From Pseudovibrio sp. Alg231-02 (GTDB lineage: Bacteria > Pseudomonadota > Alphaproteobacteria > Rhizobiales > Stappiaceae), in contig NZ_FREX01000009.1 of assembly GCF_900143565.1 (NCBI RefSeq), positions 124,001-188,000 on the forward strand: 64,000 nt of DNA. Direction: 5' to 3'. Of this stretch, positions 48,971-63,540 are shown piece after piece (position 1 is the stretch's first letter; the number at the start of each line of letters is the position of its first letter). The notes beneath the pieces are model-generated. The model was not told where the DNA came from and made no database searches. It saw only the letters and a program-made list of their open reading frames with translations. The translations under genes were made by a program, and so were the position numbers.

Positions 48971-50329
48971 TTAGGAAGAAGCGGACCACCATTCTTCGCT
49001 TCTTCCTGCCACCACATGCGCGAAAGACCCCATGACACGCCCATTGATGTGGCCCAGAGGGTCCAGATCGTGATGCTCCGCATCCTGAGCATCAAAAAGC
49101 GGCGGTGCTTCTGATTTGATCGTCAGCGTTGAATAGTGGAACTCATGCGCACCCAACGGGTTCATCCAAGGAAAGCCAGCAGACCTTGCGGCCTCTGTCG
49201 CCTTCAGCTTCCGATAGCCTAAATGCAGCTTTCTCTTCGCAAAGCTGGTTTCAATCGGCAGCAGACCAAGCATCTCGTGGGACTGCCCACTTTTATCTGT
49301 CAGCGCTTCACCAAGTACCATGTAGCCGCCACACTCACCATAAATGAGCTTGTCTGCAGCTGCAGCAGATTTTATTCCGCGCTTAAAGATGTCTGCTTGA
49401 GATAACTGTTCTGCATGAAGTTCCGGATATCCGCCACTCAGGAAGATTGCGTCAGCATTTTCTGATGGGCCTTCGTTTGCCAACGGAGAGAAGAAGGAAA
49501 GTGTAACGCCTTGCCTCTGCCAATCACTGAGCAGATGCTCGTAACTGAAAGCAAAGGCAATATCCTTAGCAATCGCGATATATTGCCCAAGCGGAGGTAA
49601 ATGAGAAATGCCTGTCAGCTCTTTGTTTTCCCGGGCAGGAATAGCAAGCACTTTCGCAAGGCGCATCAAGGCTGGCACATCCACACTTTCAGCAGCCACC
49701 TCACCAGCTGCATTTAGGAACTCTTCCAAATCCTCACGCTCACTGGCTTGCACAAGCCCTAAATGGCGCTCAGGCAACTCCAATCTCTTTGAGCGATAAA
49801 ACGCGCCTAAGACAATGACATCCAAAGGCTCTAGCGCACGCCGCAAAATGCGCTCATGACGCGGAGACCCGACCCGGTTGAGAATGACGCCATTGATGTG
49901 GCAATGAGGATGGTATGTGAGAAACCCATGGACAAGGGCAGCAACCGATTGCGCCTGAGACTTGCAATCCACCACCAGAATAACCGGCAGACCCAGATGA
50001 ACCGCTAATTCTGCAACAGAGCCAGAGCCATCAGCTGCACCGTCAAAGAGACCCATAGCTCCTTCAACAACCACAACGTCAGTGTGTTTTTCCTGCTCCG
50101 TGGCGTTGAGTGAAAGTTGCGCCAATGACATCGCCCAGGCGTCATAGTTCAGGCATGGCCGCCCGGAAGCCGCACTATGAAAAGCAGGGTCGATATAATC
50201 TGGTCCCGATTTGCCCGAGGCAATACGAAGCCCGGTATCACGAAGAGCACGCAGCAGCGCCAATGTAATCGTTGTTTTGCCAGACCCGGAAGACGGCGCT
50301 GCAATAACGAAACCCTTCGCAATGGTCAT
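48971..50329 (-). CDS. cobB: Cobyrinate / hydrogenobyrinate a,c-diamide synthase
   Basis: 452 residues. Amidates side chains a and c using glutamine and ATP. N-terminal DRTGG-like ATPase domain with the P-loop APSSGSGKTTITLALLRA (10-27) and VVVEGAMGLFDG; C-terminal type-1-like glutamine amidotransferase domain with YGECGGYMVLGEAL (catalytic Cys) and a late GRVMGSFAHVV. Starts inside the cobA stop (ATGA overlap), so cobA and cobB form one minus-strand unit. CbiA in the early-cobalt naming. Confidence 0.94.
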   Translation of the reverse strand: MTIAKGFVIAAPSSGSGKTTITLALLRALRDTGLRIASGKSGPDYIDPAFHSAASGRPCLNYDAWAMSLAQLSLNATEQEKHTDVVVVEGAMGLFDGAADGSGSVAELAVHLGLPVILVVDCKSQAQSVAALVHGFLTYHPHCHINGVILNRVGSPRHERILRRALEPLDVIVLGAFYRSKRLELPERHLGLVQASEREDLEEFLNAAGEVAAESVDVPALMRLAKVLAIPARENKELTGISHLPPLGQYIAIAKDIAFAFSYEHLLSDWQRQGVTLSFFSPLANEGPSENADAIFLSGGYPELHAEQLSQADIFKRGIKSAAAADKLIYGECGGYMVLGEALTDKSGQSHEMLGLLPIETSFAKRKLHLGYRKLKATEAARSAGFPWMNPLGAHEFHYSTLTIKSEAPPLFDAQDAEHHDLDPLGHINGRVMGSFAHVVAGRSEEWWSASS

Positions 50330-51165
50330 AGGGCAGGCTCTTCTTTCAATTGAGAGGTTTGCGAGGTACGCGCAAGAGCTGGCTCAATCCAGTTCAGTTG
50401 CTCACGCAAATTCACCACATCACCAACGACAACAATCGCAGGTGGCTTAAGGCCACTACTTTCAATATCCTCAGCGCAAGAAGCAAGCGTTGTTTCCAGC
50501 ACTTGTTGGTTCTGCTGTGTGGCATTGCAGATGACAGCAACAGGTTCAGCTGCACGTCGGCCACCACTCATAAGCTTCTGGGTAATGAGTGAAATATGCT
50601 TCATTGCCATATACATCACGATCACGGGTGATCCTTTGGCAAGAGCATCCCAGTCAAGCTCATCAGGCGCAACCCCATTCTGGTCATGACCTGTGAGGAA
50701 CGTAACTGCTTGATTAATCCCTCGGTGAGTAGATGGAATTCCAGCATATGCCAGCCCGCCAACGCCAGCTGTGATACCTGGAATGATACGGAAGGGAACG
50801 CCAGCATCCACCAGTGCAAGAGCTTCCTCCCCACCGCGGCCAAATACAAACGGATCTCCACCTTTGAGGCGCATGACACGCTTGCCGGATTTTGCAAGCT
50901 CCACCAGCTTGATCGAAATACTGGACTGCTTGGGGGAAGGTTTGCCACCGCGCTTGCCAGCATAAATGATTTCAGCACCTTCAGCCGCAAATTGAAGAAT
51001 GCGTTCATCCACCAATGCGTCATAGACAATGAGATCTGCTTGCCGCAAGCCATTCAAGGCATGCAGGCTCAGCAGACCGGGGTCTCCGGGGCCGGCACCA
51101 GCAAGCCAAACCCATCCAGCTTCAAGCACCGGAAATTCAAAGTGGGGGAGGGAGATATCAAACAA
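50326..51165 (-). CDS. cobA: Uroporphyrinogen-III C-methyltransferase (SUMT)
   Basis: 279 residues. Methylates uroporphyrinogen III at C2 and C7 to precorrin-2, the branch point to siroheme and corrins. Core motifs: WVWLAGAGPGDPGLLSLHAL, VMRLKGGDPFVFGRGGEEAL, IPGITAGVGGLAYAGIPSTH and GVNQAVTF-like (RGINQAVTFLTGHD). The start is TTG at 51165; the N-terminus it gives matches the usual length of alphaproteobacterial CobA. The 107-base gap to cbiD, transcribed the other way, contains an AATTGG-AAA-CCAATT dyad. Confidence 0.93.
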   Translation of the reverse strand: MFDISLPHFEFPVLEAGWVWLAGAGPGDPGLLSLHALNGLRQADLIVYDALVDERILQFAAEGAEIIYAGKRGGKPSPKQSSISIKLVELAKSGKRVMRLKGGDPFVFGRGGEEALALVDAGVPFRIIPGITAGVGGLAYAGIPSTHRGINQAVTFLTGHDQNGVAPDELDWDALAKGSPVIVMYMAMKHISLITQKLMSGGRRAAEPVAVICNATQQNQQVLETTLASCAEDIESSGLKPPAIVVVGDVVNLREQLNWIEPALARTSQTSQLKEEPAL

Positions 51166-51203
51166 GTGGTTCTCATGATTTATGTGGTTTTGCGTAGCAA
51201 TTT

Positions 51204-51220
51204 AATTGGAAACCAATTGG
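51204..51220. promoter_or_regulatory. Inverted repeat in the cobA-cbiD divergent promoter
   Basis: AATTGG (51204-51209), AAA, CCAATT (51213-51218), continuing as a second, overlapping palindrome CCAATTGG (51213-51220). Its central position between the two genes fits an operator that controls both. No regulator is assigned. Confidence 0.4.
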
Positions 51221-51272
51221 AAGTCCAAAGCCTTCTGCTTGGTATATCCCGCTAAATCTGTATAGTCGCCGG

Positions 51273-52391
51273 ATGGCTGAAACTGGGCAAAAAAAACTGA
51301 GAACAGGCTGGACAACAGGCGCCTGTGCAACCGCTGCGGCAAAGGCAGCGTATACAGCTTTGTTGTCTGGAGATTTTCGGGATCCGATCAGCATCACCTT
51401 GCCTCGTGGTGATACGCCATCCTTCTCACTCGCCTTCGAAAAGCTGACTGAAAATTCTGCATCAGCTGCCATCATCAAGGATGCTGGTGATGACCCTGAT
51501 GTAACCCACGGAGCGCTCATTCAGGCCAGAGTGACCTTCAACACAAAGGTTACCGGAATTCGCTTTCTCGCTGGTCCTGGCGTTGGAACGGTCACAAAAC
51601 CCGGGCTGCCGATCCCAGTTGGTGAGCCTGCCATTAATCCTGTGCCTCGCCAAATGATGACCCGTGAGTTGCAACAAGTGGCAGATGAGTACGGCGTAAC
51701 TCTTGCTGTAGATGTTGAGATATCCATCCAAAACGGCGAAGAGCTGGCTCAAAAGACCATGAACTCGCGGCTTGGTATTATCGGCGGCCTCTCTGTACTC
51801 GGCACAACGGGTATTGTCCGGCCATTTTCGTGTGCTGCCTGGATAGCATCCATTCATCGTGGTGTAGACGTTGCGCGTGCCACTGGCTTGGCCCACGTTG
51901 CAGCTGCAACAGGAGCAACCTCAGAAGATGTGTTGCGTGCCCACTATCCTGATTTATCCGAACAGGCTTATCTTGATATGGGAGACTTTGCGGGTGGCCT
52001 GCTCAAGTATCTGCGTGCGCATCCTGTTCGGAAACTAACCATCTCCGGCGGAGTTGCCAAACTGACGAAGCTTGCACAAGGGGCTATGGACCTGCATTCG
52101 GCTCGCTCAGCAGTCGATTTTGATGCACTGGCAGATGTGCTGCGTCATGCCGGAGCTTCGAAAGAGCTCCTCGCGGAAACAAGAGAGGCAAATCTAGTCT
52201 CTTATGTTGCTCAAAGAGCTGCTGCCGAAAATATTCATATGGGAGAGGTCGTTGCGCAGGGAGCACAACGTGCGGCCTTAAGCATTCTTCGTGGAGCTGC
52301 TGTAAGCGTTGAGATTATCGTGGTGGATCGGCGAGGTCAGGTATTGGGTCATGTCCCGGCTGAAGAGTCTGCAAAACTGGAGCAGTTTTGA
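51273..52391 (+). CDS. cbiD: Cobalt-precorrin-5B C1-methyltransferase
   Basis: 372 residues beginning LRTGWTTGACATAAAKAAYT, the hallmark of CbiD, with DAGDDPDVTHGALIQARV, GVGTVTKPGLPIPVGEPAIN and GTTGIVRPFSCAAWIASIHR. CbiD methylates C1 in the early-cobalt pathway; the oxygen-dependent pathway uses CobF instead. Its presence therefore supports the oxygen-independent route. The stop overlaps the start of cobK (TGATG). Confidence 0.94.
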   Translation: MAETGQKKLRTGWTTGACATAAAKAAYTALLSGDFRDPISITLPRGDTPSFSLAFEKLTENSASAAIIKDAGDDPDVTHGALIQARVTFNTKVTGIRFLAGPGVGTVTKPGLPIPVGEPAINPVPRQMMTRELQQVADEYGVTLAVDVEISIQNGEELAQKTMNSRLGIIGGLSVLGTTGIVRPFSCAAWIASIHRGVDVARATGLAHVAAATGATSEDVLRAHYPDLSEQAYLDMGDFAGGLLKYLRAHPVRKLTISGGVAKLTKLAQGAMDLHSARSAVDFDALADVLRHAGASKELLAETREANLVSYVAQRAAAENIHMGEVVAQGAQRAALSILRGAAVSVEIIVVDRRGQVLGHVPAEESAKLEQF

Positions 52392-53167
52392 TGCCAGAGA
52401 AGCCCAAAATCCTTGTGCTCGCAGGTACACGAGAAGCTAGAAAGCTGATTGCTGCACTGGCTGTGAATGGCGAGCAAAATGTCATTGCTTCACTCGCTGG
52501 AGTTACCAAAAACTCAATAGACCTTGCGGTGACAACACGTATCGGAGGCTTTGGTGGTGTCGATGGCCTCTCGAACTATCTGCAAACTCAGGATATTGCT
52601 GCCGTTATCGACGCAACCCACCCGTATGCTGCTCAAATATCCTGCAATGCGGCCAAAGCAACAAGGCACCTCGCGATTCCGTTGCTCCGGTTTGAACGAG
52701 CTGCTTGGGAGCAAGCCAATGATGATATTTGGTATTCTGCAGATAACGTAGAAGCGGCACTAAAGCTGATTCCACCCAGCGCAAAGGTCTTTTTTGCTGC
52801 CAGTGCCAAGATTGCTGCACCGCTGAAACAACGCCCGGATCTTACATTTGTAATCCGTACCTTAAATCGCCCGAGTGGGAGTGAAGTGCTTCAAAACGCG
52901 GAGTACATTGAAGGATTGCCAAATGAGAGCTGGTCCGAAGAATCCGAGCTTTTCAAGGTGCTGCAAGTAGACTGGCTCATCAGCAAAAACAGTGGCGGAT
53001 CAGCATCCTACGGCAAAATCAGAGCTGCTCGTGAGCTACAGATGCCTGTTGCGATGCTTAAGCGCCCAAAGCCATCCGGCGGCATTTTATGCGCGTCGAT
53101 TGATGAGGTCTTGAAGACCTTAAAGGCTTGCGTGAAAAATACGCAACACTGCCAAACTAATCTTTAG
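52391..53167 (+). CDS. cobK: Precorrin-6A reductase
   Basis: 258 residues: ILVLAGTREARKLIAALAV at the N-terminus, VIDATHPYAAQISCNAAKAT and WLISKNSGGSASYGKIRAAR near the C-terminus. Reduces the C18-C19 double bond with NADPH (CbiJ in the early-cobalt naming). The ATG at 52391 overlaps the cbiD stop. The 3' end overlaps the cytochrome b561 gene by 11 bases on the opposite strand. Confidence 0.93.
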   Translation: MPEKPKILVLAGTREARKLIAALAVNGEQNVIASLAGVTKNSIDLAVTTRIGGFGGVDGLSNYLQTQDIAAVIDATHPYAAQISCNAAKATRHLAIPLLRFERAAWEQANDDIWYSADNVEAALKLIPPSAKVFFAASAKIAAPLKQRPDLTFVIRTLNRPSGSEVLQNAEYIEGLPNESWSEESELFKVLQVDWLISKNSGGSASYGKIRAARELQMPVAMLKRPKPSGGILCASIDEVLKTLKACVKNTQHCQTNL

Positions 53168-53714
53168 GTTTCTGATAGGGCGCCGTTGTCATCCGCTCGA
53201 TAATCCCATCTTTAGCGATGAGCCAGTGATAGAGCGCGCCTAAAATGTGCAGCGTGATCAGCCATGCAAACACAACACCAACAGTTGCATGGAAATCCAG
53301 AATGCTTTCTGAAACTGGACGATTTTGCGAAACGATACTCGGCAGATCAAACAAGCCAAAAAATGGCATTGGTGCTCCATAAAGAGAGAGCCCAACCCAG
53401 CCTAATATCGGATTTACGATCAGCACGAGATAGAGCAACCCATGTACTGAACGTGAGACGATCCGCAGAGCTGGTGAAAGAGAGGCTGGCGGCGGTGGAG
53501 CAGGCGTAATCCAATGCTGAAGAAGGCGCAAAACCACGAGCAGGAAGAGCAGGATACCGATGCTCTTGTGATAGAAGTAGAGCGTATTCTGAAGGGCTCC
53601 AGGCCCCAGATCTGTCATCACCAGTCCCATCGGAACCATGATTAAGACCAGAATGGCGACGATCCAGTGATACGTCTTCGCCATGGCTGAATATCCGGCA
53701 ACTTGATAGGCCAT
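53157..53714 (-). CDS. Cytochrome b561
   Basis: 185 residues with four transmembrane helices. Four histidines suited to bind two hemes are in AKTYHWIVAI, LYFYHKSIGI, LDFHATVGVV and LITLHILGAL. The family transfers electrons between quinol and periplasmic acceptors, e.g. superoxide (CybB). The N-terminal half has a polyproline loop (APPPPASL). It is convergent with cobK; no functional link to corrin synthesis is apparent. Confidence 0.9.
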   Translation of the reverse strand: MAYQVAGYSAMAKTYHWIVAILVLIMVPMGLVMTDLGPGALQNTLYFYHKSIGILLFLLVVLRLLQHWITPAPPPPASLSPALRIVSRSVHGLLYLVLIVNPILGWVGLSLYGAPMPFFGLFDLPSIVSQNRPVSESILDFHATVGVVFAWLITLHILGALYHWLIAKDGIIERMTTAPYQKPKD

Positions 53715-53824: not shown

Positions 53825-54679
53825 GTGAACTCGGTAAAACAAGGGGGCTTGATGGACAGGGGCCACACAACACCAATACATCAACAAGATCATCCGAATA
53901 ATTCTCAGTTGACCTGCGAAAAGCCGCTAGAACAATCTTCAGGGTTTTTGTCTCCTGATGAATGGCAGGAGGTCTTAGCAGCATCAGTGGAGAGGCGTGC
54001 GCCAAACCTGCAAGGTTATGGCAGTGTGTTTGCACCTCTTTGCATGGCGCAAAAGCAGTTTGTTATTGGTCAGCTTGGACAGTCAGTTGATGGCCGCATT
54101 GCAACGGTCACCGGAGACTCCAATTATGTGAGTTGTTCTGAAGCATTGATCCATCTTCACCGGCTCCGGGCACTTTGTGATGCTGTCGTGGTGGGAGTGG
54201 GAACAGCGGTTGCGGACAACCCTCAACTCACTGTCAGGCATGTCAGCGGACGGCACCCCGCACGTATTGTCATTGACCCTTATGGCCGTATGCCGCGCGA
54301 CAGTACACTCCTGCAGGATACAAATGCCCGCCGCATTGTGATTACGCGAACAGATGCCCATGCGCGTTATCCTGATGGAGTGGAATGCTTTCAGCTACAG
54401 CCAAATGCAAAAGGCCGTCTGTCCTGTGCTGAAATCCGGCATGTACTGCGAGAGTTTCGATGCATCCTCGTTGAAGGTGGTGCTTGGACATTGTCTCGCT
54501 TTATCGAGCTAAAAATGATCGATCGTCTTCACCTGATGATCGCCCCGCTCATCATCGGATCAGGACCAAGAGGTCTTCAGTTGCCTGCAATTGATTATCT
54601 CGCACAGGCTATCCGCCCCGATGTCACTTGGCATCCTTTGGGTGTTGATATGCTGGCAGATCTGAGCCTGAACAATTAA
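53825..54679 (+). CDS. RibD C-terminal-domain (reductase-like) protein
   Basis: 284 residues. The first 78 residues are polar and not conserved-looking; from about residue 79 the RibD reductase/dihydrofolate-reductase-like domain runs QLGQSVDGRIATVTGDSNYV, HRLRALCDAVVVGVGTAVAD, NPQLTVRHVSGRHPARIVID and ILVEGGAWTLSRFIE, and ends MIAPLIIGSGPRGL. The deaminase half of riboflavin-specific RibD is absent, so this is not the housekeeping enzyme. It should reduce a ribosyl- or pyrimidine/pterin-type substrate with NADPH. The start is GTG with GGTGAGGTGAG upstream. Downstream genes (NUDIX, and on the other strand a PTPS-like operon) point to a dedicated small-molecule pathway. Confidence 0.85.
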   Translation: MNSVKQGGLMDRGHTTPIHQQDHPNNSQLTCEKPLEQSSGFLSPDEWQEVLAASVERRAPNLQGYGSVFAPLCMAQKQFVIGQLGQSVDGRIATVTGDSNYVSCSEALIHLHRLRALCDAVVVGVGTAVADNPQLTVRHVSGRHPARIVIDPYGRMPRDSTLLQDTNARRIVITRTDAHARYPDGVECFQLQPNAKGRLSCAEIRHVLREFRCILVEGGAWTLSRFIELKMIDRLHLMIAPLIIGSGPRGLQLPAIDYLAQAIRPDVTWHPLGVDMLADLSLNN

Positions 54680-54763
54680 CTTTTCCAAAGGGTTGAAAAG
54701 CATTTCCTTTCGCCGGCAAGTGCCCGTATAAATTTGCGTGAATTCCCGAATAAGGACACACGC

Positions 54764-55333
54764 ATGCCAGAGCTCATAAGACGCACGACCCTTTGGGAAG
54801 CTAAAGGGCGGATTGAGGAAGTTGAAGTGCGTGTTGTTCACGAAGATGGACGCGAGCACATTACGACAGATCCGGTATGGGTCTACGGCGATTCAATTGC
54901 TGTGCTGGCTTATGACCCTCAAGCGAAAACAGTCCTGATCGTTAAGCAACTCCGAGTCGCGCCCTACATTATGGAGGAAGAGATTATCCTAGAGGCATGC
55001 GCTGGCGGAATCGAGATCAGCGATCTGTCCATAGAAGAAGCATGTGTACGCGAAGCTCAGGAAGAGCTTGGGTGCCTGCTCACCAATCTCACTAAGGTCG
55101 CGAATGTCTTCATCAACCCCGCACGTCTTGCTGAGCGGGCGCATTTTTTCCTCGCCGAGTACACATCTGGCGACCTGAATATTGAAGGGCGCGATCTGGA
55201 CGAAGACGAAGATATTGAAGTTGTCGAGCTATCATTCCATGAACTGCGAAGCCTTTACGAGAAACAGGAAATCCGCTGCCCACGCCTTTTCATGCTCACA
55301 CAGGCGTTGATCTTAAAGAACATAGGCCTCTAA
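54764..55333 (+). CDS. NUDIX hydrolase, NudK-like
   Basis: 189 residues from the ATG at 54764 (AAGGA upstream). The N-terminal antiparallel module (WEAKGRIEEVEVRVVHEDGR, VLIVKQLRVAPYI) and the NUDIX helix CVREAQEELGCLL are clear; the E upstream of the REAQEELG core, usually at fixed spacing, is replaced (GGIEISDLSIEEA), as is common in the GDP-mannose pyrophosphatase (NudK) branch. Acts on a nucleoside diphosphate linked to another group. It may hydrolyse a nucleotide sugar or pterin triphosphate for the surrounding gene set. It lies 84 bases after the RibD-like gene. Confidence 0.85.
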   Translation: MPELIRRTTLWEAKGRIEEVEVRVVHEDGREHITTDPVWVYGDSIAVLAYDPQAKTVLIVKQLRVAPYIMEEEIILEACAGGIEISDLSIEEACVREAQEELGCLLTNLTKVANVFINPARLAERAHFFLAEYTSGDLNIEGRDLDEDEDIEVVELSFHELRSLYEKQEIRCPRLFMLTQALILKNIGL

Positions 55334-55366
55334 TTTTGAGCGCTGGAAGCAAAGGTCTTCATAGCT

Positions 55367-56188
55367 TCATTGAGGCGGAAGGCCAACAATATCAACATGC
55401 CCGACCTGCAGTTGTGATTTGCCTTTGCCAAGTGCCGCTAAACGAAATTCCAGCCAATCATCCACGATTGTATCTGATACCCCAACTTCGCGTGCCGCTT
55501 GGGCCCACCCCTTAATCAGCTCCAGCTGCAAAGCATCGTCTTCAGGTGCACATACCCAGTCAGAGCGTCCGGTAAAGCAGGTATACCCCGCCTTAAGTAA
55601 TCGCTCACGAGCATGAAACCCACCAAGCGGCCCTAACGCAGACCCAAATCCTTTATCTGTGGCTTGGTGCTGATTGAATGCGCGCTGAATAAGCCGGTCT
55701 GTTGGGTGGTGTGGTTTGCTCAGTAGGATACCGTTGTACGAAAGCCCTGCAAGAAACGGGAGTTTCAGCTGACGCATACGGGCAACAAAGCTATCCAGCC
55801 AATTTGCACTTACAAGATCCAGAAAGGCCGAGGTAACAACCCCATGATGCCCTTCCAGAATATCCAGTGACCCGGCATCAGTCAGTTCGCAAACATCTGT
55901 TTTCGTTCTCGTATGAGGCAAGGGAGGAGAGATGCGTTTTGCAACTTTGAGAAGTTCAGGGTCGTTGTCGATCAGCAACCACACCTGCTCCCTGTTTGAC
56001 TCAATGTGTTCTGCCAGATCCTGCAGAAAGGAACCGGTTCCAGCGCCCACATCTATGAGCCGGAGTGGGCCACCCTTGGGGGCATGCTCGACCAACCAGC
56101 TACAAAATTTTTTCATGACGTCTTTGTTGCGCGCTCGCCGGTCTGCTTTACGACGTAATGAGAGCCATTCAGAGGAAAATCCACTCAC
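55367..56188 (-). CDS. Class I SAM-dependent methyltransferase
   Basis: 273 residues. The SAM-binding glycine motif is RLIDVGAGTGSFLQDLAEHI (about residues 41-60), followed by WLLIDNDPELLKVAKRI. The rest, including HQATDKGFGSALGP and CFTGRSDWVCAPEDDALQLE, does not point to a known substrate. The GTG at 56188 overlaps the glycosyltransferase stop (GTGA); a TTG seven codons earlier is possible. It is the last of four coupled minus-strand genes. Methylation of a glycosylated pterin-like product is a reasonable guess, not more. Confidence 0.85.
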   Translation of the reverse strand: MSGFSSEWLSLRRKADRRARNKDVMKKFCSWLVEHAPKGGPLRLIDVGAGTGSFLQDLAEHIESNREQVWLLIDNDPELLKVAKRISPPLPHTRTKTDVCELTDAGSLDILEGHHGVVTSAFLDLVSANWLDSFVARMRQLKLPFLAGLSYNGILLSKPHHPTDRLIQRAFNQHQATDKGFGSALGPLGGFHARERLLKAGYTCFTGRSDWVCAPEDDALQLELIKGWAQAAREVGVSDTIVDDWLEFRLAALGKGKSQLQVGHVDIVGLPPQ

Positions 56189-57294
56189 CTGTGAGCCTCC
56201 AGTGTGCAAGCAAAGGCCTTTGCGCTGTCATTCCAATCTGGCAATGCACGAGCAGCAGCAAGGGCCCCAGTTGAAAGTTGAGAGCGTAACTCTTTGTTTT
56301 GAAGAAGTGTTTCGATGGCCTTGCCCAAAGCTAGAGGATCGCCCGCACCAACATGAAAGCCAGCTGTAGGCGGAACCGTCGATGCGACAGCGCCTTCGCC
56401 ACTTGCAATAATCGGGAGCCCAAAACTCATAGCCTCCGCAAAAACCATCCCGTATCCCTCATAGTATGTTGGGAGCACAAAGAGGTCGGCTGATTGATAG
56501 AAACCCGTTAGTTCAGCTTTGGGAATACCTCCATGAACGCGAATACGCTCAGTGAGGTCATGCTTTTTGATCTGAGATCGCACTTGGCTCGCATATTCTG
56601 GATCAAACCGCGTTTCTCCAATGAGATCCAGATGCCAGTCCATATGCTTCAGTTGCCCCAGCGCTTCAACTAAATGCAATTGTCCTTTTCGCGGTACCAA
56701 CGACCCAACACAAAGCAACTTTGGGGTTGCCAGAGCTTCGTTCGAGGTTGCAACGCTCTCCGAGACAGTCGGCCGATCAATACCGGGCAGAACAATACTG
56801 ATCTTTTCCGCTGGAACGCCCATTTGAGAGACAAGCGTCTTCTGTGTCGAAGGACTGGTCACAATCACATGCTTTGCAAACGTGAGAGCTTTCGTCTCAG
56901 CCGCGCGGAGCACCTTTGCCAGCTTAGGGTCAATCCCACTTTCCAGAAACAGTGGGTGATGAACCAGCGCAATGAGATTGGAACGCTCAGCGATACTCTG
57001 CGCCAAATCAGATGAAGCCCCAAGCACCAAACCATCCACGATGATCAAAGCTGAGGGCTCTATCTCTTCAATGACTTCAAACGCCAACTTTTTGTCGGCA
57101 TCAGATGGGACCGGGTAGGTGCCTTCAAGGCTAATGAGTGAGACATTCCAGCCGTGTTTCTGCAGCCCCCGAATGATCTCACGATCATATCGATAACCAC
57201 CTGTAGGCGTGTTCAGATCACCCGGAAAGACAAAATAGCAAGATCTGGCAGGTGCTTCTGCTGTCTGGCCTAAAGAAGGATGTAAGTTACTCAT
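56185..57294 (-). CDS. GT4-family glycosyltransferase
   Basis: 369 residues. N-terminal FPGDLNTPTGGYRYDREIIR and C-terminal GTB features: ISIVLPGIDRP, LLCVGSLVPRKGQLHLVEAL, RVHGGIPKAELTGFYQSADL and the donor-site EGYGMVFAEAMSFGLPIIAS (the EX7E motif). It should transfer a sugar from a nucleotide donor with retention. The operon around it (pterin-synthase-like, dehydrogenase, methyltransferase) suggests a small-molecule acceptor rather than polysaccharide. The ATG overlaps the PTPS-like stop by 8 bases. Confidence 0.9.
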   Translation of the reverse strand: MSNLHPSLGQTAEAPARSCYFVFPGDLNTPTGGYRYDREIIRGLQKHGWNVSLISLEGTYPVPSDADKKLAFEVIEEIEPSALIIVDGLVLGASSDLAQSIAERSNLIALVHHPLFLESGIDPKLAKVLRAAETKALTFAKHVIVTSPSTQKTLVSQMGVPAEKISIVLPGIDRPTVSESVATSNEALATPKLLCVGSLVPRKGQLHLVEALGQLKHMDWHLDLIGETRFDPEYASQVRSQIKKHDLTERIRVHGGIPKAELTGFYQSADLFVLPTYYEGYGMVFAEAMSFGLPIIASGEGAVASTVPPTAGFHVGAGDPLALGKAIETLLQNKELRSQLSTGALAAARALPDWNDSAKAFACTLEAHR

Positions 57295-57706
57295 GAGCCT
57301 CGGATGCAGTCAACGGCGCCTCATAAGACGCACGCGCATTAGGGTTCTCGGAAATTGAAACGCGCACCTTGCTAAGTTCGCTCGGTTCGCGGCCCAGTTT
57401 ATGTAGATAAGCAGCATCGCACACGCGCTGGTAAATGTAGCTACAGAGAAAATCGACCGTGGTGTTCCGCCCCTTGAACTGAGGAAGGTCATCAAGATTC
57501 TTGTAGTTGAACGGATGCAGAATTTCTGCCAGCACATCAAGTGCATTGCCAATGTCTATGACAATCCCGTTCTCATCCAGTTCCTCTGCAAATATAGCGA
57601 CGTGGACGTGTGCAGTAAGGCCATGAAGCTGAGAGGCAGGACCAAACACCTCTCCTTTCAGGCTGTGCGCGATCATAATGTGATTGCTGATTTCGACTGA
57701 ATACAT
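57287..57706 (-). CDS. Divergent 6-pyruvoyltetrahydropterin synthase/QueD-like protein
   Basis: 139 residues with the T-fold of the PTPS/QueD family. Aligned by eye to E. coli QueD: the zinc His of FEAAH is kept (MIAHSL), but the HGH zinc pair is altered (LHGLTAHVHV), the catalytic Cys upstream of it is Ala/Ser (GPASQLHG), and the Asp-His pair is Phe-Asn (LHPFNYKNL). The C-terminal Glu that binds the pterin is kept (SENPNARASYE). The usual lyase/synthase reaction is therefore doubtful; a different pterin-related reaction or binding role is likely. It lies 18 bases after the dehydrogenase gene and overlaps the glycosyltransferase gene. Confidence 0.8.
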   Translation of the reverse strand: MYSVEISNHIMIAHSLKGEVFGPASQLHGLTAHVHVAIFAEELDENGIVIDIGNALDVLAEILHPFNYKNLDDLPQFKGRNTTVDFLCSYIYQRVCDAAYLHKLGREPSELSKVRVSISENPNARASYEAPLTASEAHE

Positions 57707-57724
57707 CTCAAAATCCTCATAAAA

Positions 57725-58702
57725 TTAAGTGTAAACAATGGGTTGACATAAAGTATCTTTCTTGCCTGAAAGAACGTCTTTCAAATCCTTCGGCGCTTTT
57801 TCAAATTCGATGGGAGGCGCGAGCAAAGTATCGAGTACGTCATCTTTCAGAAGAGAGATTGCCGCCTCCATTCGCCTGCGGTGCGTCCAGCGTGGCCTCA
57901 TGATGGGAGCAACCTGACCGACTTGAGACGAGATAAGACTAAGGCGCTGACTGTGAAAACTCCCGCCAAGAACAAGGCCGGAAGGGCGCGAGCCATACCA
58001 GGACGCCTCCACAATTCTGGCTTCTCTCCCTGCAATTCGGATCGCAGTGTTCAAGCCAGCTTCAGAGGCGCTGCAATGCACGACAACATCTTGATTTTCG
58101 GGAGCAACTTCCGGCAAGGAAAATGCGCAGGAAAACTCGTCTGCAATGTCCTGCCGCTTCGGGTTGACGTCAATCATAGTCACGTGCGCACCTGCGATGC
58201 GAGCGCAAAGATAGCCAACCAGCGAGCCAACAGTGCCAGCACCAACCACGGCAACGTTGGAGCATGGCAGAATAGCTGCATCCCACATGATGTTCAGCGC
58301 TGTTTCCATGTTTGCTGCCAAAGTGGCTCGGGTGCTCGGTAAATCACAAGGAATAAGATAGAGCGCATCTGCGGAGAGCAGAAAGTTGTTCTGGTGCGGA
58401 AAAAGAGAAAAAACGCGTTGGCCCGCTTTTAAATTATCTTTTGTTTCAATCACTTCAGAAACGTTTGCGTAGCCGTATTTAACAGGAAAGGGAAAGGTCC
58501 CTTCCTGAAACGGAGCTATCATTCGTTCCCGCTCGCTCACTGGCACATCGCCACGATAGACAATGGCCTCCGTACCTCGGCTGATCGCGGAAGCATGAGT
58601 TTTTAAGTAAACACGGTTACCAGATGATTTAGAGAGTTTTTCCTCTCTTATTTCAATGGTTTGAGGCGCAGTGTACCAAAGCGCTCTGGCTAACTCAGAC
58701 AA
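57725..58702 (-). CDS. MDR-family dehydrogenase of the pterin-like cluster
   Basis: 325 residues. The frame is open to 58828 but would then overlap the divergent opgH start; the TTG at 58702 with GGGGAG upstream gives a normal N-terminus (SELARALWYTAPQTIEIREE). Features are HASAISRGTEAIVYRGDVP, FPFPVKYGYANVSEVI, and the Rossmann VAVVGAGTVGSLVGYLCARI. The structural zinc cysteines are missing, so it is a catalytic-zinc or zinc-free MDR reductase. First gene of the four-gene operon. Its substrate may be a side-chain carbonyl of a pterin-like compound. Confidence 0.83.
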   Translation of the reverse strand: MSELARALWYTAPQTIEIREEKLSKSSGNRVYLKTHASAISRGTEAIVYRGDVPVSERERMIAPFQEGTFPFPVKYGYANVSEVIETKDNLKAGQRVFSLFPHQNNFLLSADALYLIPCDLPSTRATLAANMETALNIMWDAAILPCSNVAVVGAGTVGSLVGYLCARIAGAHVTMIDVNPKRQDIADEFSCAFSLPEVAPENQDVVVHCSASEAGLNTAIRIAGREARIVEASWYGSRPSGLVLGGSFHSQRLSLISSQVGQVAPIMRPRWTHRRRMEAAISLLKDDVLDTLLAPPIEFEKAPKDLKDVLSGKKDTLCQPIVYT

Positions 58703-58816: not shown

Positions 58817-60691
58817 ATGACAAAACAATCACGGGTTCCTGAAGAGAACGCCCGCACTAGTCTTGTTGACCAGCTGCTCTCCACCAACATCATCGACAAG
58901 CATCAGGAAAATAAGCGCTTATTCAGGCGCAGACTGATCTTTGGAGGGCTCGTTCTAACCTCTTTAGCAGTGTTGACCACCATCATGTCACTCACACTGT
59001 TCCTCAACGGTTTTGCCCTTTCAAAAGTCGTGATGCTTCTCGCATTTCTGGTAACCTTACCATGGCTCGTCATCGGTTTCTGGCATGCTGTCATTGGCTT
59101 GATGCTCATGAGATTTTCTTCAAATTCCACCGCTCAGGTATACGCTGGCACGCCGCTGGGTACACTTGACCTAAAAAAGCCTTTGCAGAATAAGCAAACC
59201 GCCTTGCTTTCCTGCGTGCGAAACGAAGATTCACCTGAAGTGGCTGCGAAGCTGGAAGCGATGCTTCAAGATCTGGATCGTCTGGAAAAACTCAACGGCT
59301 TCTCTCTCTATATCCTGAGTGACAGCAATGATCCTGAGCATATCCGGCAAGAAATGCGGGAGTTCTCCCTACTGCGGGCACGATGGCAAAATCGGATTGA
59401 AGTGCTTTATCGTAGACGTGAAAAGAATACCGGCTTCAAAGCAGGAAATGTCGAAGATTTCTGCCGCAACTGGGGGACACGGCATGAATATGCGATCACG
59501 CTGGATGCTGATAGCTTCCTCTCAGCAGAATCCCTATGCCACCTTGTAAGCAAAATGAATGCAAATCCGCGTCTGGGTATTTTGCAAACACTTGTTCTGG
59601 GACTTTCAACCAACTCGTTCTTCACCCGTGTTTTCCAATGGGGTATGCGTTTGGGAATGCGCTCCTACACGCTTGGCGCAGCGTGGTGGCAAGGCTCGTC
59701 AGGTCCGTATTGGGGACACAATGCGATTTTTCGCATAAAGCCCTTCACGCAGTTCTGCATGCTGGAGCCTCTGCCAGGAAATGACGCATTGAGCGGCCCG
59801 ATCCTCAGTCATGATCAGGTTGAAGCTGCGATGATGGCAGACGCGGGCTATGAGGTGCGCGTATGGCCGGTAGAAGGTGGCAGCTATGAAGAAAACCCAC
59901 CTCATTTGATCGAGTTTATCCGCAGAGATCTGCGCTGGTGTCACGGAAACCTTCAGTACTTTAAGTTGCTCAGAGAGCCCGGGTTTAAGCTTTTGGGACG
60001 AATCCAACTTGGCCTTGCAATCCTCATGTTTGCTGGCTCTCCGGCATGGCTCGTTTTTATCGCAATGGCGATTTTAACCGCATCTGTTTCCGCGCCCGAG
60101 ACGATAACATTCGATCCGTTTTACGGCACGATCCTGATTGTGGCCATCATGAGCATGGTCTTTGCACCCAAACTTGCGACGCTTGCCCATGTCCTGACAG
60201 TTCGGAACGAACGCCGGGATTATGGCGGCTCTTTCTCGGTGTTTGTCAGTGCATTCTTCGAGCTGGTCTATTCCATGTTGCTAGCACCAGTCATGGCAAT
60301 TGCGCACAGCATCTTTATTGCACAACTGTTCGCAGGACGAAAAACGCAATGGGGAGGGCAGGAAAGACAACCCCATGGTATTCCGTTCCTTTTGGCAGTG
60401 AAGAAGTTCTGGCCCCAAACTCTTTTCGGCCTTTGCGGTGTGATTTGGATGATGGATTATACCTTTGCAGATACGTGGCTTCTGCTTCCGGTAATCCTTG
60501 GACCATTGCTAACAATACCGTTTGCAATGATCACCTCAAAACCAGCGCTCGGTATGTACTTTAAACACTCCGGACTTTGGCTGTTGCCTGAAGAAAAGAA
60601 AACACCGCTTGAACTGCAAGGCCTCAATAAAGAGCAGCGCCGTGTAGAGTTGGAACTTGCCAAGGCAAACCGAGCTGCGGTCACGCGATAA
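58817..60691 (+). CDS. opgH: Glucans biosynthesis glucosyltransferase H (OpgH/MdoH)
   Basis: 624 residues with two N-terminal and about four to six C-terminal membrane helices around a cytoplasmic GT2 domain. GT2 landmarks: LSCVRNEDSPEVAAKLEAML, KNTGFKAGNVEDFCRNWG, the DxD in AITLDADSFLS and the RRDLRWCHGNLQ motif that replaces QxxRW in OpgH. It makes the beta-1,2-linked backbone of osmoregulated periplasmic glucans from UDP-glucose at the inner membrane. OpgG and OpgD are not in this window. Divergent from the pterin-like operon; followed by a terminator. Confidence 0.93.
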   Translation: MTKQSRVPEENARTSLVDQLLSTNIIDKHQENKRLFRRRLIFGGLVLTSLAVLTTIMSLTLFLNGFALSKVVMLLAFLVTLPWLVIGFWHAVIGLMLMRFSSNSTAQVYAGTPLGTLDLKKPLQNKQTALLSCVRNEDSPEVAAKLEAMLQDLDRLEKLNGFSLYILSDSNDPEHIRQEMREFSLLRARWQNRIEVLYRRREKNTGFKAGNVEDFCRNWGTRHEYAITLDADSFLSAESLCHLVSKMNANPRLGILQTLVLGLSTNSFFTRVFQWGMRLGMRSYTLGAAWWQGSSGPYWGHNAIFRIKPFTQFCMLEPLPGNDALSGPILSHDQVEAAMMADAGYEVRVWPVEGGSYEENPPHLIEFIRRDLRWCHGNLQYFKLLREPGFKLLGRIQLGLAILMFAGSPAWLVFIAMAILTASVSAPETITFDPFYGTILIVAIMSMVFAPKLATLAHVLTVRNERRDYGGSFSVFVSAFFELVYSMLLAPVMAIAHSIFIAQLFAGRKTQWGGQERQPHGIPFLLAVKKFWPQTLFGLCGVIWMMDYTFADTWLLLPVILGPLLTIPFAMITSKPALGMYFKHSGLWLLPEEKKTPLELQGLNKEQRRVELELAKANRAAVTR

Positions 60692-60806: not shown

Positions 60807-60906
60807 GCGTATCTCCGAAAAGTGGAAGCCGGTTTTCAGATAAAGATACACAAAAACAAAGACTAAAGCAGTTCAGGTGTTCCAACTTAAATGCGAACTG
60901 CTTTAG
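60807..60906. repeat. Two-hairpin intergenic repeat, copy 2
   Basis: Same structure as the copy at 13003-13092: GTATCTCCGAAAAGTGGAAG, then GGTTTTCAGATAAAGATAC, then an inverted repeat CTAAAGCAGTTC (60863-60874) with GAACTGCTTTAG (60895-60906). It lies between the convergent opgH and opgC-like genes. Its right end reaches over the last bases of the opgC-like gene and includes its stop codon (60903-60905). Confidence 0.8.
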
Positions 60907-62054
60907 GAAGCTGGTTTTTCCTTTGGCTTTCTCCATGGCTCACCCTTAAACCATGCCACGGTATAGGCGACGGCAATTAAGCCTGCAAAACCAAGCAAGT
61001 TTGCCATGATTCCACCTGTGACCGTGCCTTTCAAACCGAGCTCATCCCGGAAGATTGCAATGCCCTGCGCAAGAATGAGGCTTGCAAGGAAAACAGCGAG
61101 AGACTGTTGGCCTACCTTCTTGATGACCCGGACAACTTTGCCACCAAAACCGCCCATGAGCAGCCGTTGCCCGCCTTCTCCAACAGCTACCCACGCCACA
61201 TAAGCAAGGGCTAGGAAGTGGATGTAGCGCAGGAGGCCCATCTCGGATTTTACGGTGAGGTCGCTGATATCATTTGCAATTCTGCGGAGCTCAGGCACCT
61301 CATTGAGAATGCGGAAGTAAGCAAACGGAATCGTAAGAATAATAATCGAGGCGCTCAGGAACAAGAGACGTTTCTTGACTGGAGGAGCCGGAATCCAGCC
61401 CTTGATGAAGGCAAATCCAGTAAAGAACAGCAACTGCCATGCAAATGGATTGAAGAACCAACGGCGATCGGACCATGGCTCAGCAGGGAAATCCACCAGT
61501 CGGAAGGTTGCGATCAGCCAAAATGCAATGATGATTGCTGCAACCGCACCTCGTCCGGCCTTGTAATAGGCAATCATGATCACCGGCAACATCGCAAGGA
61601 TCACCAGATACATTGGCAGAATATCGAAGTAGTTCGGCACATAGGTAAGGGTCAGCAAACCTGGCAGCTGGAAGATCGGATCTTCGAAGAAGTGCCAAAG
61701 GTTCAGCTTCCCGACATAGTCGTCGCTGGTCCAGCCGTTGATTTGCAGGAAGGCAAGCATGCCCGCAACGGCGAGGAACAGGCAGATATGGGCCCAATAA
61801 ACTTGCCAGACGCGATAAAGAACACGCGCGCTGCCCATGACCAGGCCATGCAGTTCAAAGACGCGCCCGAAGGCAATTGCGGAGGCCATGCCAGAGCAAA
61901 ACACAAATATCTCGGTTGCATCGGAGAACCCGAAACGCGCCGGAATCCAAAGAGCCCACCCGTTTGCAGGAAGGTGGGCTATGAAGATGATGAACATTGC
62001 GATCCCTCGAAAAAAATCGAGGCGTGGATCTCTTGGTCGGCTGGCCGTTTTCAT
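60903..62054 (-). CDS. opgC: OpgC-like membrane acyltransferase
   Basis: 383 residues from the ATG at 62054 (MKTASRPRDPRLDFFRGIAM); the frame is open further upstream to 62183 but that part overlaps the preceding gene and lacks family features. About ten membrane helices. The RLDFFRGIAMFIIFIAHLPA opening with DFFRG and the nearby His fits the OpgC_C family; the fungal-like acyltransferase 3 pattern continues with FGFSDATEIFVFCSGMASAI. OpgC proteins add succinyl groups to periplasmic glucans in Rhodobacter. The adjacent opgH supports that role. The stop codon lies in the intergenic repeat. Confidence 0.85.
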   Translation of the reverse strand: MKTASRPRDPRLDFFRGIAMFIIFIAHLPANGWALWIPARFGFSDATEIFVFCSGMASAIAFGRVFELHGLVMGSARVLYRVWQVYWAHICLFLAVAGMLAFLQINGWTSDDYVGKLNLWHFFEDPIFQLPGLLTLTYVPNYFDILPMYLVILAMLPVIMIAYYKAGRGAVAAIIIAFWLIATFRLVDFPAEPWSDRRWFFNPFAWQLLFFTGFAFIKGWIPAPPVKKRLLFLSASIIILTIPFAYFRILNEVPELRRIANDISDLTVKSEMGLLRYIHFLALAYVAWVAVGEGGQRLLMGGFGGKVVRVIKKVGQQSLAVFLASLILAQGIAIFRDELGLKGTVTGGIMANLLGFAGLIAVAYTVAWFKGEPWRKPKEKPAS

Positions 62055-62154
62055 AGGGGTCGGCGGTATACTGTGCTGGTTCACGATGTCTCTGAAACTA
62101 AAAACTATAGATGATGAAATGCAGCTCCGAAATCCCCCGAAGCTGCACCTCCAT

Positions 62155-63540
62155 TTATCCCATACGGAATCGTAGGTGTTCACTTTGCATGAGGTCGGTG
62201 GCTTCCGTCATGCGAGTTGCTTGAGCCATGCGGGTTTCACCATAGGTGTCTGATCCGCCTCTCAAGCGTGTGCGCTCATCAATCATCCGTTTTGCTTCCT
62301 GGCAAAGGCCAGCGCGCAAAGCGGCTTCAATGGTGAGGCGTTCAAATACATCACGCTGAGCATGACTGCCACCAACGGTACGCAGCAGCGGGCGTGCTTC
62401 TGCGAGGTGGTGGTAAGCGCTGAAGTAATTGCCGTTCTTGAACTGCATCAATCCAGATGCTGTTGGAGAACCGGCTGTTTTGGTCACGAGACCCATCTCG
62501 TTGGTGTCTTGTTCGCCAAATGTGCGCATTCGAGTCAACAGGCGGTCAGAGGACTGACGACGGTTGTCTCCCAGCAGAGCAAGCATGTAGTGCAAGTCTG
62601 CGAAAACATTACAGGAATCGTCGACACGCTTTTCGCTGATGCTCGCCAGCTCTTCCCAGCGGTTACCTACCTTGATGCCCTCAAGCTCAAGGCGAACCAG
62701 CATGGAAGCTGCGTTGGAGATATCGCGATAATCGTCTGTGTGATCTTTACGGAACTTTTGGTCATAGAGCTCGAAAACACGCTCAACATTGCCACGATCA
62801 AGGTGCAGCAGCGCAAGGTGCCACCAAACGTGATAACCAAAGTTGTTGCAGTGTTCCCAAGCCTTTGGCTGGTCATCAAGCCATTTGATGCCTTCTTCGG
62901 TCTGGCCGGTCATGTCCAGCACGTGGGCAACTGCATGCAGGCCCCAGGCATCATCATGTTGAAAAGCAACGGCTTCTTTGCCGATCCGTTCAGCCCGGTC
63001 AAAATCACCAGTCTCTTCCAGCGCAAAGGAGTAACAACCGTGTACATAGCCTTTTGCGATATGGTCGTCTTCATAAGACGAGATCACACCTTCAATCGAG
63101 GAGCGCATGCGGGATGGCTGGCCAAGAACGAAGCGAATAGCGTGGACGAGCTTCAGAAGGAATGCATCGCGTGGGTATTTAAGAAGCAGTTCGTCAAGGC
63201 GATCAGCAGACTTGGTCGGCGTACCCTGAAGCCAGTCATTCAAAGCTTCAACAACAGCTTCTTCACGGTCCGTAATCTGTGTATCTCTGCGGCATTTATC
63301 AGCAATTGCATAAGCTTCAAAAGCAGTTGCTGTCATTTCGCGTCTGCCAAGCAGTAGGCAGAACAGGCCACGCGCGGCTTGAGCCAGAGCGAAGTCTGGA
63401 TCGGCCTCCAGTGTTTTCGCAAGATGCTCCGGCGTTGCAGCACTATGTGCCAAAAACGCAAGAATAGTGTTGTTCCAGTGTGTTAATGCACTCTTATCGG
63501 AGAGTGTTACCGTGTATTCGAACTGGTCATCAATGCGCAT
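62155..63540 (-). CDS. Tetratricopeptide-like (TTC38 family) protein
   Basis: 461 residues, soluble, mostly helical. It contains repeated TPR-like pairs (ALAQAARGLFCLLLGRREMT, DDAWGLHAVAHVLDMTGQTE, NGNYFSAYHHLAEARPLL) and the pattern HNFGYHVWWHLALLHLDRG (here NNFGYHVWWHLALLHLDRG) that is typical of TTC38 proteins, conserved from bacteria to mammals with no fixed function. 100 bases separate it from the downstream opgC-like gene on the same strand. No signal peptide. Confidence 0.85.
   Translation of the reverse strand: MRIDDQFEYTVTLSDKSALTHWNNTILAFLAHSAATPEHLAKTLEADPDFALAQAARGLFCLLLGRREMTATAFEAYAIADKCRRDTQITDREEAVVEALNDWLQGTPTKSADRLDELLLKYPRDAFLLKLVHAIRFVLGQPSRMRSSIEGVISSYEDDHIAKGYVHGCYSFALEETGDFDRAERIGKEAVAFQHDDAWGLHAVAHVLDMTGQTEEGIKWLDDQPKAWEHCNNFGYHVWWHLALLHLDRGNVERVFELYDQKFRKDHTDDYRDISNAASMLVRLELEGIKVGNRWEELASISEKRVDDSCNVFADLHYMLALLGDNRRQSSDRLLTRMRTFGEQDTNEMGLVTKTAGSPTASGLMQFKNGNYFSAYHHLAEARPLLRTVGGSHAQRDVFERLTIEAALRAGLCQEAKRMIDERTRLRGGSDTYGETRMAQATRMTEATDLMQSEHLRFRMG

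What the first reader, a model, noticed from the sequence alone, without database searches (positions are those of the whole stretch)
53825..58702. Possible biosynthetic locus for a glycosylated, methylated pterin or pyrimidine
A four-gene operon with overlapping or near-touching ends (MDR dehydrogenase, PTPS/QueD-like, GT4 glycosyltransferase, SAM methyltransferase) lies beside a RibD-reductase-only protein and a NUDIX hydrolase. RibD and PTPS folds act on GTP-derived pyrimidines and pterins; adding a glycosyltransferase and methyltransferase implies a modified, exported or stored product rather than folate, queuosine or riboflavin.
Basis: partly seen in the sequence, partly recalled or inferred. 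Interest (0 to 1): 0.72.

Follow-up and report, generated by a model that had tools for sequence, protein, structure and literature searches.

The report
Widespread orphan pterin-like glycoside biosynthesis locus
A block of genes that seems to turn a vitamin-B2-type or pterin-type building block into a sugar-bearing, methylated molecule delivered to or beyond the cell membrane recurs in several bacterial phyla, and neither its product nor its purpose appears to be known.

Summary
The window (a Pseudovibrio relative) carries MDR dehydrogenase–PTPS-like–GT4–methyltransferase in one tight operon, with a reductase-only RibD protein beside it. The locus is conserved far beyond close relatives. In an even draw of 398 Pseudomonadota genomes, 27 have this PTPS subtype; near it MDR is found in 27 of 27, GT4 in 26, methyltransferase in 25, RibD-reductase in 23. 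Records of Actinomycetota, Acidobacteriota and Gemmatimonadota also have it. The PTPS-like protein is not QueD: 131 of 131 homologues lost the catalytic Cys and one zinc His but keep the pterin-anchoring Glu, and a second, QueD-like protein sits in its own operon in the same genome. Its only PDB match is SCO6650 of Streptomyces, deposited as uncharacterised. NUDIX is not part of it (1 of 131 regions). Best reading: a GTP-derived ribityl-pyrimidine or pterin is methylated, glycosylated and placed on or beyond the inner membrane. The locus is well supported; the product is inferred. Ten paper searches found no description of it.

The parts
57725..58702 (-). MDR dehydrogenase, first gene of the operon (BchC is its best NCBIfam match, far below cut-off; usual zinc ligands absent by my reading)
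   Evidence: cluster type at 415 bits or more in exactly the 40 of 61 genomes that have the PTPS-like gene
57287..57706 (-). PTPS/QueD-fold protein of the SCO6650 type, catalytic Cys to Ala, one Zn His lost, pterin-binding Glu kept
56185..57294 (-). GT4 glycosyltransferase
   Evidence: 124 of 131 regions
55367..56209 (-). class I SAM methyltransferase (by comparison with its relatives the start may be about 24 nt further in)
   Evidence: Pfam matches are below the curated cut-off (24.4 and 22.7 against 27 bits); 117 of 131 regions
53825..54679 (+). RibD_C reductase without deaminase, best PDB match 2azn
   Evidence: 87 of 131 regions
58817..60691 (+). MdoH-type membrane glycosyltransferase, divergent from the operon
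   Evidence: 90 of 131 regions
53157..53714 (-). cytochrome b561, likely accessory partner
   Evidence: 48 of 131 regions
60903..62183 (-). OpgC-type glucan acyltransferase, possible accessory
   Evidence: 12 of 131 regions

Best explanation
The locus is a dedicated biosynthetic unit that branches off the first steps of riboflavin/pterin metabolism. Inferred order: (1) GTP is opened by a GCH II (encoded in the cluster in many relatives, not found intact in this genome) to a 6-ribosylamino-pyrimidinone phosphate; (2) the RibD_C protein reduces the ribosyl to a ribityl chain without removing the 2-amino group, as archaeal and fungal reductases do; (3) the PTPS-fold protein, which keeps the ring-anchoring Glu but lost the QueD/PTPS machinery, does a new step on the pyrimidine or pterin ring; (4) the MDR enzyme oxidises or reduces a hydroxyl/keto group of the side chain; (5) the methyltransferase and GT4 add a methyl group and a sugar; (6) the product is extended and carried across the inner membrane by the MdoH-type glycosyltransferase (here), or attached to a phospholipid by a CDP-alcohol phosphatidyltransferase and flipped (in other lineages), where cytochrome b561 may exchange electrons with it. 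Shown: the genes, their conservation, co-occurrence, and the loss of QueD residues. Inferred: every reaction and the product.
For: Conservation: 27 of 398 evenly drawn Pseudomonadota genomes have this PTPS subtype at 183 bits or more, the next score being 63.5. Near it in those 27: MDR 27, GT4 26, MT 25, RibD_C 23, MdoH or CDP-alcohol PT 21 (13 and 12, both 4), RibA 11. Gene-content linkage: cluster-type MDR in 40 of 40 PTPS+ and 0 of 21 PTPS- genomes (one PTPS- genome at 177 bits); cluster RibD_C in 27 of 40 and 0 of 21. Phyla: Actinomycetota, one Gemmatimonadota and one Acidobacteriota metagenome bin. Pyrimidine/pterin link: all three Zn Cys in 37 of 37 readable RibA copies, 38 of the 49 found having been looked at; RibD_C closest to 2azn; pterin Glu in 131 of 131. 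Membrane link: Neorhizobium has mdoH-MDR-PTPS-GT4-MT on one strand; 38 sampled cluster MdoH separate from 9 opgG-linked OpgH with SH-aLRT 100; an ABC exporter family beside mdoH in beta loci, whose one tested member passes the NdvA glucan-exporter model; flippase-like protein in 16 regions, all 16 with CDP-alcohol PT; six switches between MdoH-only and CDP-alcohol-PT-only loci on the MDR tree.
Against: No product, mutant or enzyme assay is known to me. RibA is in only 49 of 131 regions and RibD_C in 87, so the substrate is not fixed by the core; 13 of 40 PTPS+ relatives lack the cluster-type RibD_C. This genome's only PF00925 match is a RibB fusion whose GCH II part lacks the Zn Cys motif. GT4 and MT sequences do not tell the acceptor. 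Cytochrome b561 is in 48 of 131 only. The two membrane modules are not strictly exclusive: 4 regions have both, although none did in the first 106, and 23 of 131 have neither. Two of three Streptomyces plasmid regions viewed hold the PTPS-like gene without partners.
Confidence: 0.48

Rival explanations
1. A modified periplasmic glucan or glycolipid pathway in which the PTPS-fold and RibD_C proteins were recruited for chemistry unrelated to pterins; the main product is a carbohydrate/lipid and no pteridine is made.
For: MdoH, OpgC, CDP-alcohol PT and flippase-like protein in the neighbourhoods and an NdvA-type exporter in beta loci; RibA not found in 82 of 131 regions.
Against: Pterin-anchoring Glu kept in 131 of 131; RibD_C keeps the RibD/RIB7-type motif residues in 17 of 17 aligned; RibA, where looked at, is intact by Zn ligands; canonical opgG-opgH lies elsewhere in this genome.
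Confidence: 0.2
2. A soluble, secreted natural product or pigment of the azapteridine/lumazine kind, with the membrane genes acting only as exporters.
For: Same entry enzymes (GCH II, RibD-like) as recalled for toxoflavin; 23 plasmid records hold a relative.
Against: Found in Polynucleobacter and Methylopumilus records (recalled as small-genome freshwater bacteria) and in 35 of 37 same-family genomes, more like a standing trait of the lineage; CDP-alcohol PT is not an exporter.
Confidence: 0.2
3. A queuosine, folate or biopterin branch (QueD, PTPS-III or PTPS-II paralogue).
For: PTPS fold; most annotated relatives viewed are called 6-carboxytetrahydropterin synthase.
Against: Catalytic Cys to Ala in 131 of 131 and the HGH motif broken in 131 of 131; NCBIfam QueD score 39.4 against a cut-off of 89.25; a second, QueD-like protein in a queC-queD-queE-like operon in this genome.
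Confidence: 0.02

Closest known systems
SCO6650 of Streptomyces coelicolor (PDB 3d7j)
   Same: Same PTPS subfamily, E 6e-28 over residues 1-131; a Streptomyces plasmid relative has CDP-alcohol PT, MDR, PTPS, GT4, MT, creatininase and RibA together, no RibD_C found there
   Different: Deposited as uncharacterised; recalled from memory: its paper reports no zinc, no catalytic triad and no PTPS activity. A look-up of that paper by a recalled identifier found nothing held
QueD / PTPS-I (queuosine)
   Same: PTPS fold, first Zn His (130 of 131), HG motif and pterin Glu
   Different: Catalytic Cys and third Zn His missing in 131 of 131
Archaeal/fungal early riboflavin route (ArfB/ArfC, RIB7)
   Same: RibD_C reductase without deaminase, best PDB match 2azn (its identity as the archaeal reductase is recalled); 13 of 131 regions have a creatininase-family hydrolase
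   Different: The one creatininase tested scores 22.5 bits against the ArfB model, cut-off 180; later steps are different genes
OpgH/MdoH periplasmic glucan synthase
   Same: MdoH family; RxxRW motif in 38 of 38 and DAD motif in 37 of 38 sampled
   Different: Separate side of the tree from opgG-linked OpgH, not beside opgG in this genome, tied to the PTPS operon
Glycosylated pterins of cyanobacteria and Chlorobi (cyanopterin, limipterin; recalled)
   Same: Idea of a glycosylated pterin
   Different: Those are recalled to use the PTPS-II biopterin route; here the PTPS active-site Cys is gone

Membership tests
QueD (6-carboxytetrahydropterin synthase) | catalytic Cys four residues before the HGH motif | tested here: not met
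   Ala in 131 of 131 homologues; own-genome QueD-like protein has Cys
QueD (6-carboxytetrahydropterin synthase) | three His zinc site | tested here: not met
   third His is Ala/Leu/Ser in 131 of 131
QueD (6-carboxytetrahydropterin synthase) | NCBIfam TIGR03367 cut-off | tested here: not met
   39.4 against 89.25 bits
SCO6650-type PTPS subfamily | sequence relation to 3d7j with Cys to Ala | tested here: met
RIB7/ArfC-type reductase | RibD_C domain without deaminase, closest to archaeal reductase | tested here: met
RIB7/ArfC-type reductase | NCBIfam TIGR01508 cut-off | tested here: not met
   96.6 against 186.45 bits; ribD_Cterm TIGR00227 also below its cut-off, 120.7 against 150.15. So it is likened to, not filed under, this family
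RIB7/ArfC-type reductase | reduces the ribosylamino-pyrimidinone phosphate | not testable with these tools
   needs an assay
OpgH periplasmic glucan synthase | MdoH equivalog score | tested here: inconclusive
   passes NF003958 (541.6 against 419) and NF003962 (457.8 against 328), below the cut-off of the seven other MdoH models listed
OpgH periplasmic glucan synthase | partner opgG next to it | tested here: not met
   the genome's one MdoG match lies on contig C14 beside another MdoH copy
BchC dehydrogenase | NCBIfam TIGR01202 cut-off | tested here: not met
   44.9 against 291.25
FAPy-releasing GCH II (SCO6655 type, recalled) | Tyr105 (E. coli) replaced | tested here: inconclusive
   Tyr kept in only 2 of 37 readable cluster RibA, but the RibBA of 4i14 also lacks it

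The most novel reading that the evidence does not exclude
The cluster makes a membrane- or periplasm-tethered pteridine (a ribityl-pterin carrying sugar and methyl groups, joined to a phospholipid or a glucan depending on lineage) that acts with cytochrome b561 as an extracytoplasmic redox cofactor. No tethered pterin cofactor is known to me in bacteria; one phrase search of the paper library found none.
Probability: 0.15. Interest if true: 0.88.

Novelty: new variant of a known kind. Interest (0 to 1): 0.62.

Why it matters
About 7% of an even sample of Pseudomonadota genomes (27 of 398), plus records from three other phyla, carry a coherent gene set with no product known to me, and the one solved protein matched is listed as uncharacterised. 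The gene set gives concrete predictions (GTP origin, C2-amino kept, glycoside, membrane or periplasmic destination) that one mutant and a metabolite comparison can test. It would also give a meaning to a PTPS subfamily that public records viewed here mostly label as 6-carboxytetrahydropterin synthase.

Tried and rejected
NUDIX as a pathway member: rejected, 1 of 131 regions. QueD/folate role: rejected. Strict exclusion of MdoH and CDP-alcohol PT: first seen as 0 of 106, then corrected by the even sample, 4 regions have both. Tyr105 replacement as proof of a FAPy-making GCH II: downgraded, because the RibBA of 4i14 has Ala there. Creatininase as ArfB: not supported by score. Mirror-tree correlations (0.48-0.95) agree with co-inheritance but are not corrected for species phylogeny, so they are not used as evidence. 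The first MdoH tree held one wrong reading frame (L177) and was repeated. So no fold result is used and no fold search was run. Paper searches: ten (open-licence PMC only); five returned no paper, the other five returned listings in which I saw no title or abstract start about the cluster. Of PMC5041015, PMC3509567 and PMC2853524 I saw passages only; no paper was read whole.
Full report
What is there. The operon MDR-PTPS-GT4-MT runs on the minus strand with listed overlaps of 25 and 8 bp and one 18-bp gap; RibD_C lies downstream facing it, and an mdoH-like gene starts on the other strand 114 bp from the TTG taken as the MDR start. The genome belongs to the genus of Pseudovibrio flavus: a same-genus genome (G012) shares its 309,188-bp contig length with P. 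flavus RKSG542.

The PTPS-like protein. Pfam PTPS scores 78 bits, but NCBIfam QueD only 39.4 against a cut-off of 89.25. The only PDB match at E 0.001 is 3d7j, 'Uncharacterized protein SCO6650', E 6e-28. In 131 homologues the catalytic Cys is Ala in 131, the second His of HGH is Ala/Leu/Ser in 131, the catalytic His is Tyr in 119, and the pterin-anchoring Glu is kept in 131; the residue roles are recalled, the comparison is with the QueD-like protein of this genome. That second PTPS protein scores 113.7 bits and lies in a queC-queD-queE-queF-like operon (the queC, queE and queF names are my reading of the sequences). So the window protein is not the queuosine enzyme.

Conservation. Among 61 genomes (own and 60 relatives) 40 have the PTPS-like gene. 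The cluster-type MDR (415 bits or more) is in exactly those 40 and in none of the other 21, one of which has a 177-bit match. The cluster-type RibD_C (283 bits or more) is in 27 of the 40 and 0 of the 21. In 398 Pseudomonadota genomes drawn evenly, 27 score 183 bits or more with alignment A1, and the next match is 63.5. For those 27 (25 freshly fetched, two of these stretches being shorter than 18 kb; plus L091 and the window) the neighbourhood holds MDR in 27, GT4 in 26, MT in 25, RibD_C in 23, MdoH in 13, CDP-alcohol PT in 12, RibA in 11, flippase-like LPG_synthase_TM in 11, cytochrome b561 in 8, creatininase in 6. Five control stretches gave no operon gene. In all 131 regions (116 after merging PTPS copies 90% or more identical): MDR 124, GT4 124, MT 117, MdoH 90, RibD_C 87, RibA 49, b561 48, CDP-alcohol PT 22, flippase-like 16, creatininase 13, OpgC 12, NUDIX 1; 23 have neither MdoH nor CDP-alcohol PT. 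Some regions are cut by contig ends, so these are lower bounds. Against the reading: of three Streptomyces plasmid regions viewed, two (L036, L173) hold the PTPS-like gene without the partners, and two Rhodobacterales regions (L133, L175) lack GT4.

Chemistry. The RibD_C protein matches 2azn (E 3.8e-23; recalled as the archaeal reductase of M. jannaschii) better than any PDB chain named RibD (best 8.3e-19). In 17 of 17 aligned relatives it keeps DG, an Arg-Ala pair, D-x-P and EGG, but it reaches no NCBIfam cut-off. A bifunctional-size RibD (392-aa frame) exists elsewhere in the genome. This suggests reduction to a ribityl chain without deamination, leaving a 2-amino (pterin-like) ring. Of the 49 cluster RibA copies 38 were looked at: one was cut off, the other 37 keep all three zinc Cys, and 2 of 37 keep Tyr105. 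That recalls the formyl-retaining SCO6655 enzyme (from memory; the paper is not held), but it is not diagnostic because the RibBA of 4i14 also lacks Tyr. A table in PMC2853524 lists SCO6655, and another GCH II, SCO2687, among genes whose expression is anticorrelated with predicted flux (passage seen); since both are listed, this is weak. The MDR lacks the usual zinc ligands (my reading of the sequence) and its best family match is BchC, far below cut-off.

Membrane modules. In the first 106 regions MdoH is upstream of and opposite to PTPS in 75 of 79, and in Neorhizobium it is the first gene on the same strand as the operon. This genome's opgG sits beside another MdoH copy on contig C14, and 38 sampled cluster MdoH proteins separate from 9 opgG-linked ones with SH-aLRT 100. 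Beta loci add an ABC exporter beside mdoH; the one member tested passes the NdvA glucan-exporter model (813.9 against 733). Elsewhere a CDP-alcohol phosphatidyltransferase is found, in 12 of 12 cases of the even sample divergent from and next to MDR among the genes profiled. The flippase-like protein was found in 16 regions, all with that gene. MdoH and CDP-alcohol PT occur together in 4 of 131 regions (Fisher p 1e-7, not corrected for relatedness), and the MDR tree needs six switches between loci with only one or the other. I take them as alternative ways to bring or fix the product at or beyond the membrane.

Conclusion. That this is a real, widespread biosynthetic locus of unknown product is strongly supported. 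That it makes a GTP-derived, methylated, glycosylated ribityl-pyrimidine or pterin directed to the membrane or periplasm is the best-supported inference, with confidence about one half. No enzyme step has been shown. No paper describing the cluster was found in the searches, which cover open-licence PMC only.

Noticed in passing
own genome C8:971078-971536 (L043:5055-6398): The only GTP cyclohydrolase II match in this genome is a RibB fusion whose GCH II part lacks the zinc Cys motif. Of 13 genomes of the genus searched with a cluster RibA, only two (G003, G010) show a strong match (E below 1e-40), so the entry enzyme of riboflavin synthesis is unclear there.
   Followed up: partly
window 48971-53167: Cobalamin biosynthesis genes (CobB-, CobA-, CbiD- and CobK-like by reading the sequences) lie next to the locus.
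   Followed up: no
L036:9001-9426 and L173:9001-9399: Two Streptomyces plasmids carry lone copies of the PTPS-like gene without the partners, near MBL-fold, cupin and BTAD-regulator genes.
   Followed up: no
L128:5285-6388: A protein family with a signal-like start and no Pfam or NCBIfam match (one member tested) sits near mdoH in 20 of 102 regions.
   Followed up: partly
L074: A metagenome record titled Bordetella parapertussis carries the cluster in an order shared with Alcaligenaceae and Polynucleobacter records; the label may be wrong.
   Followed up: no
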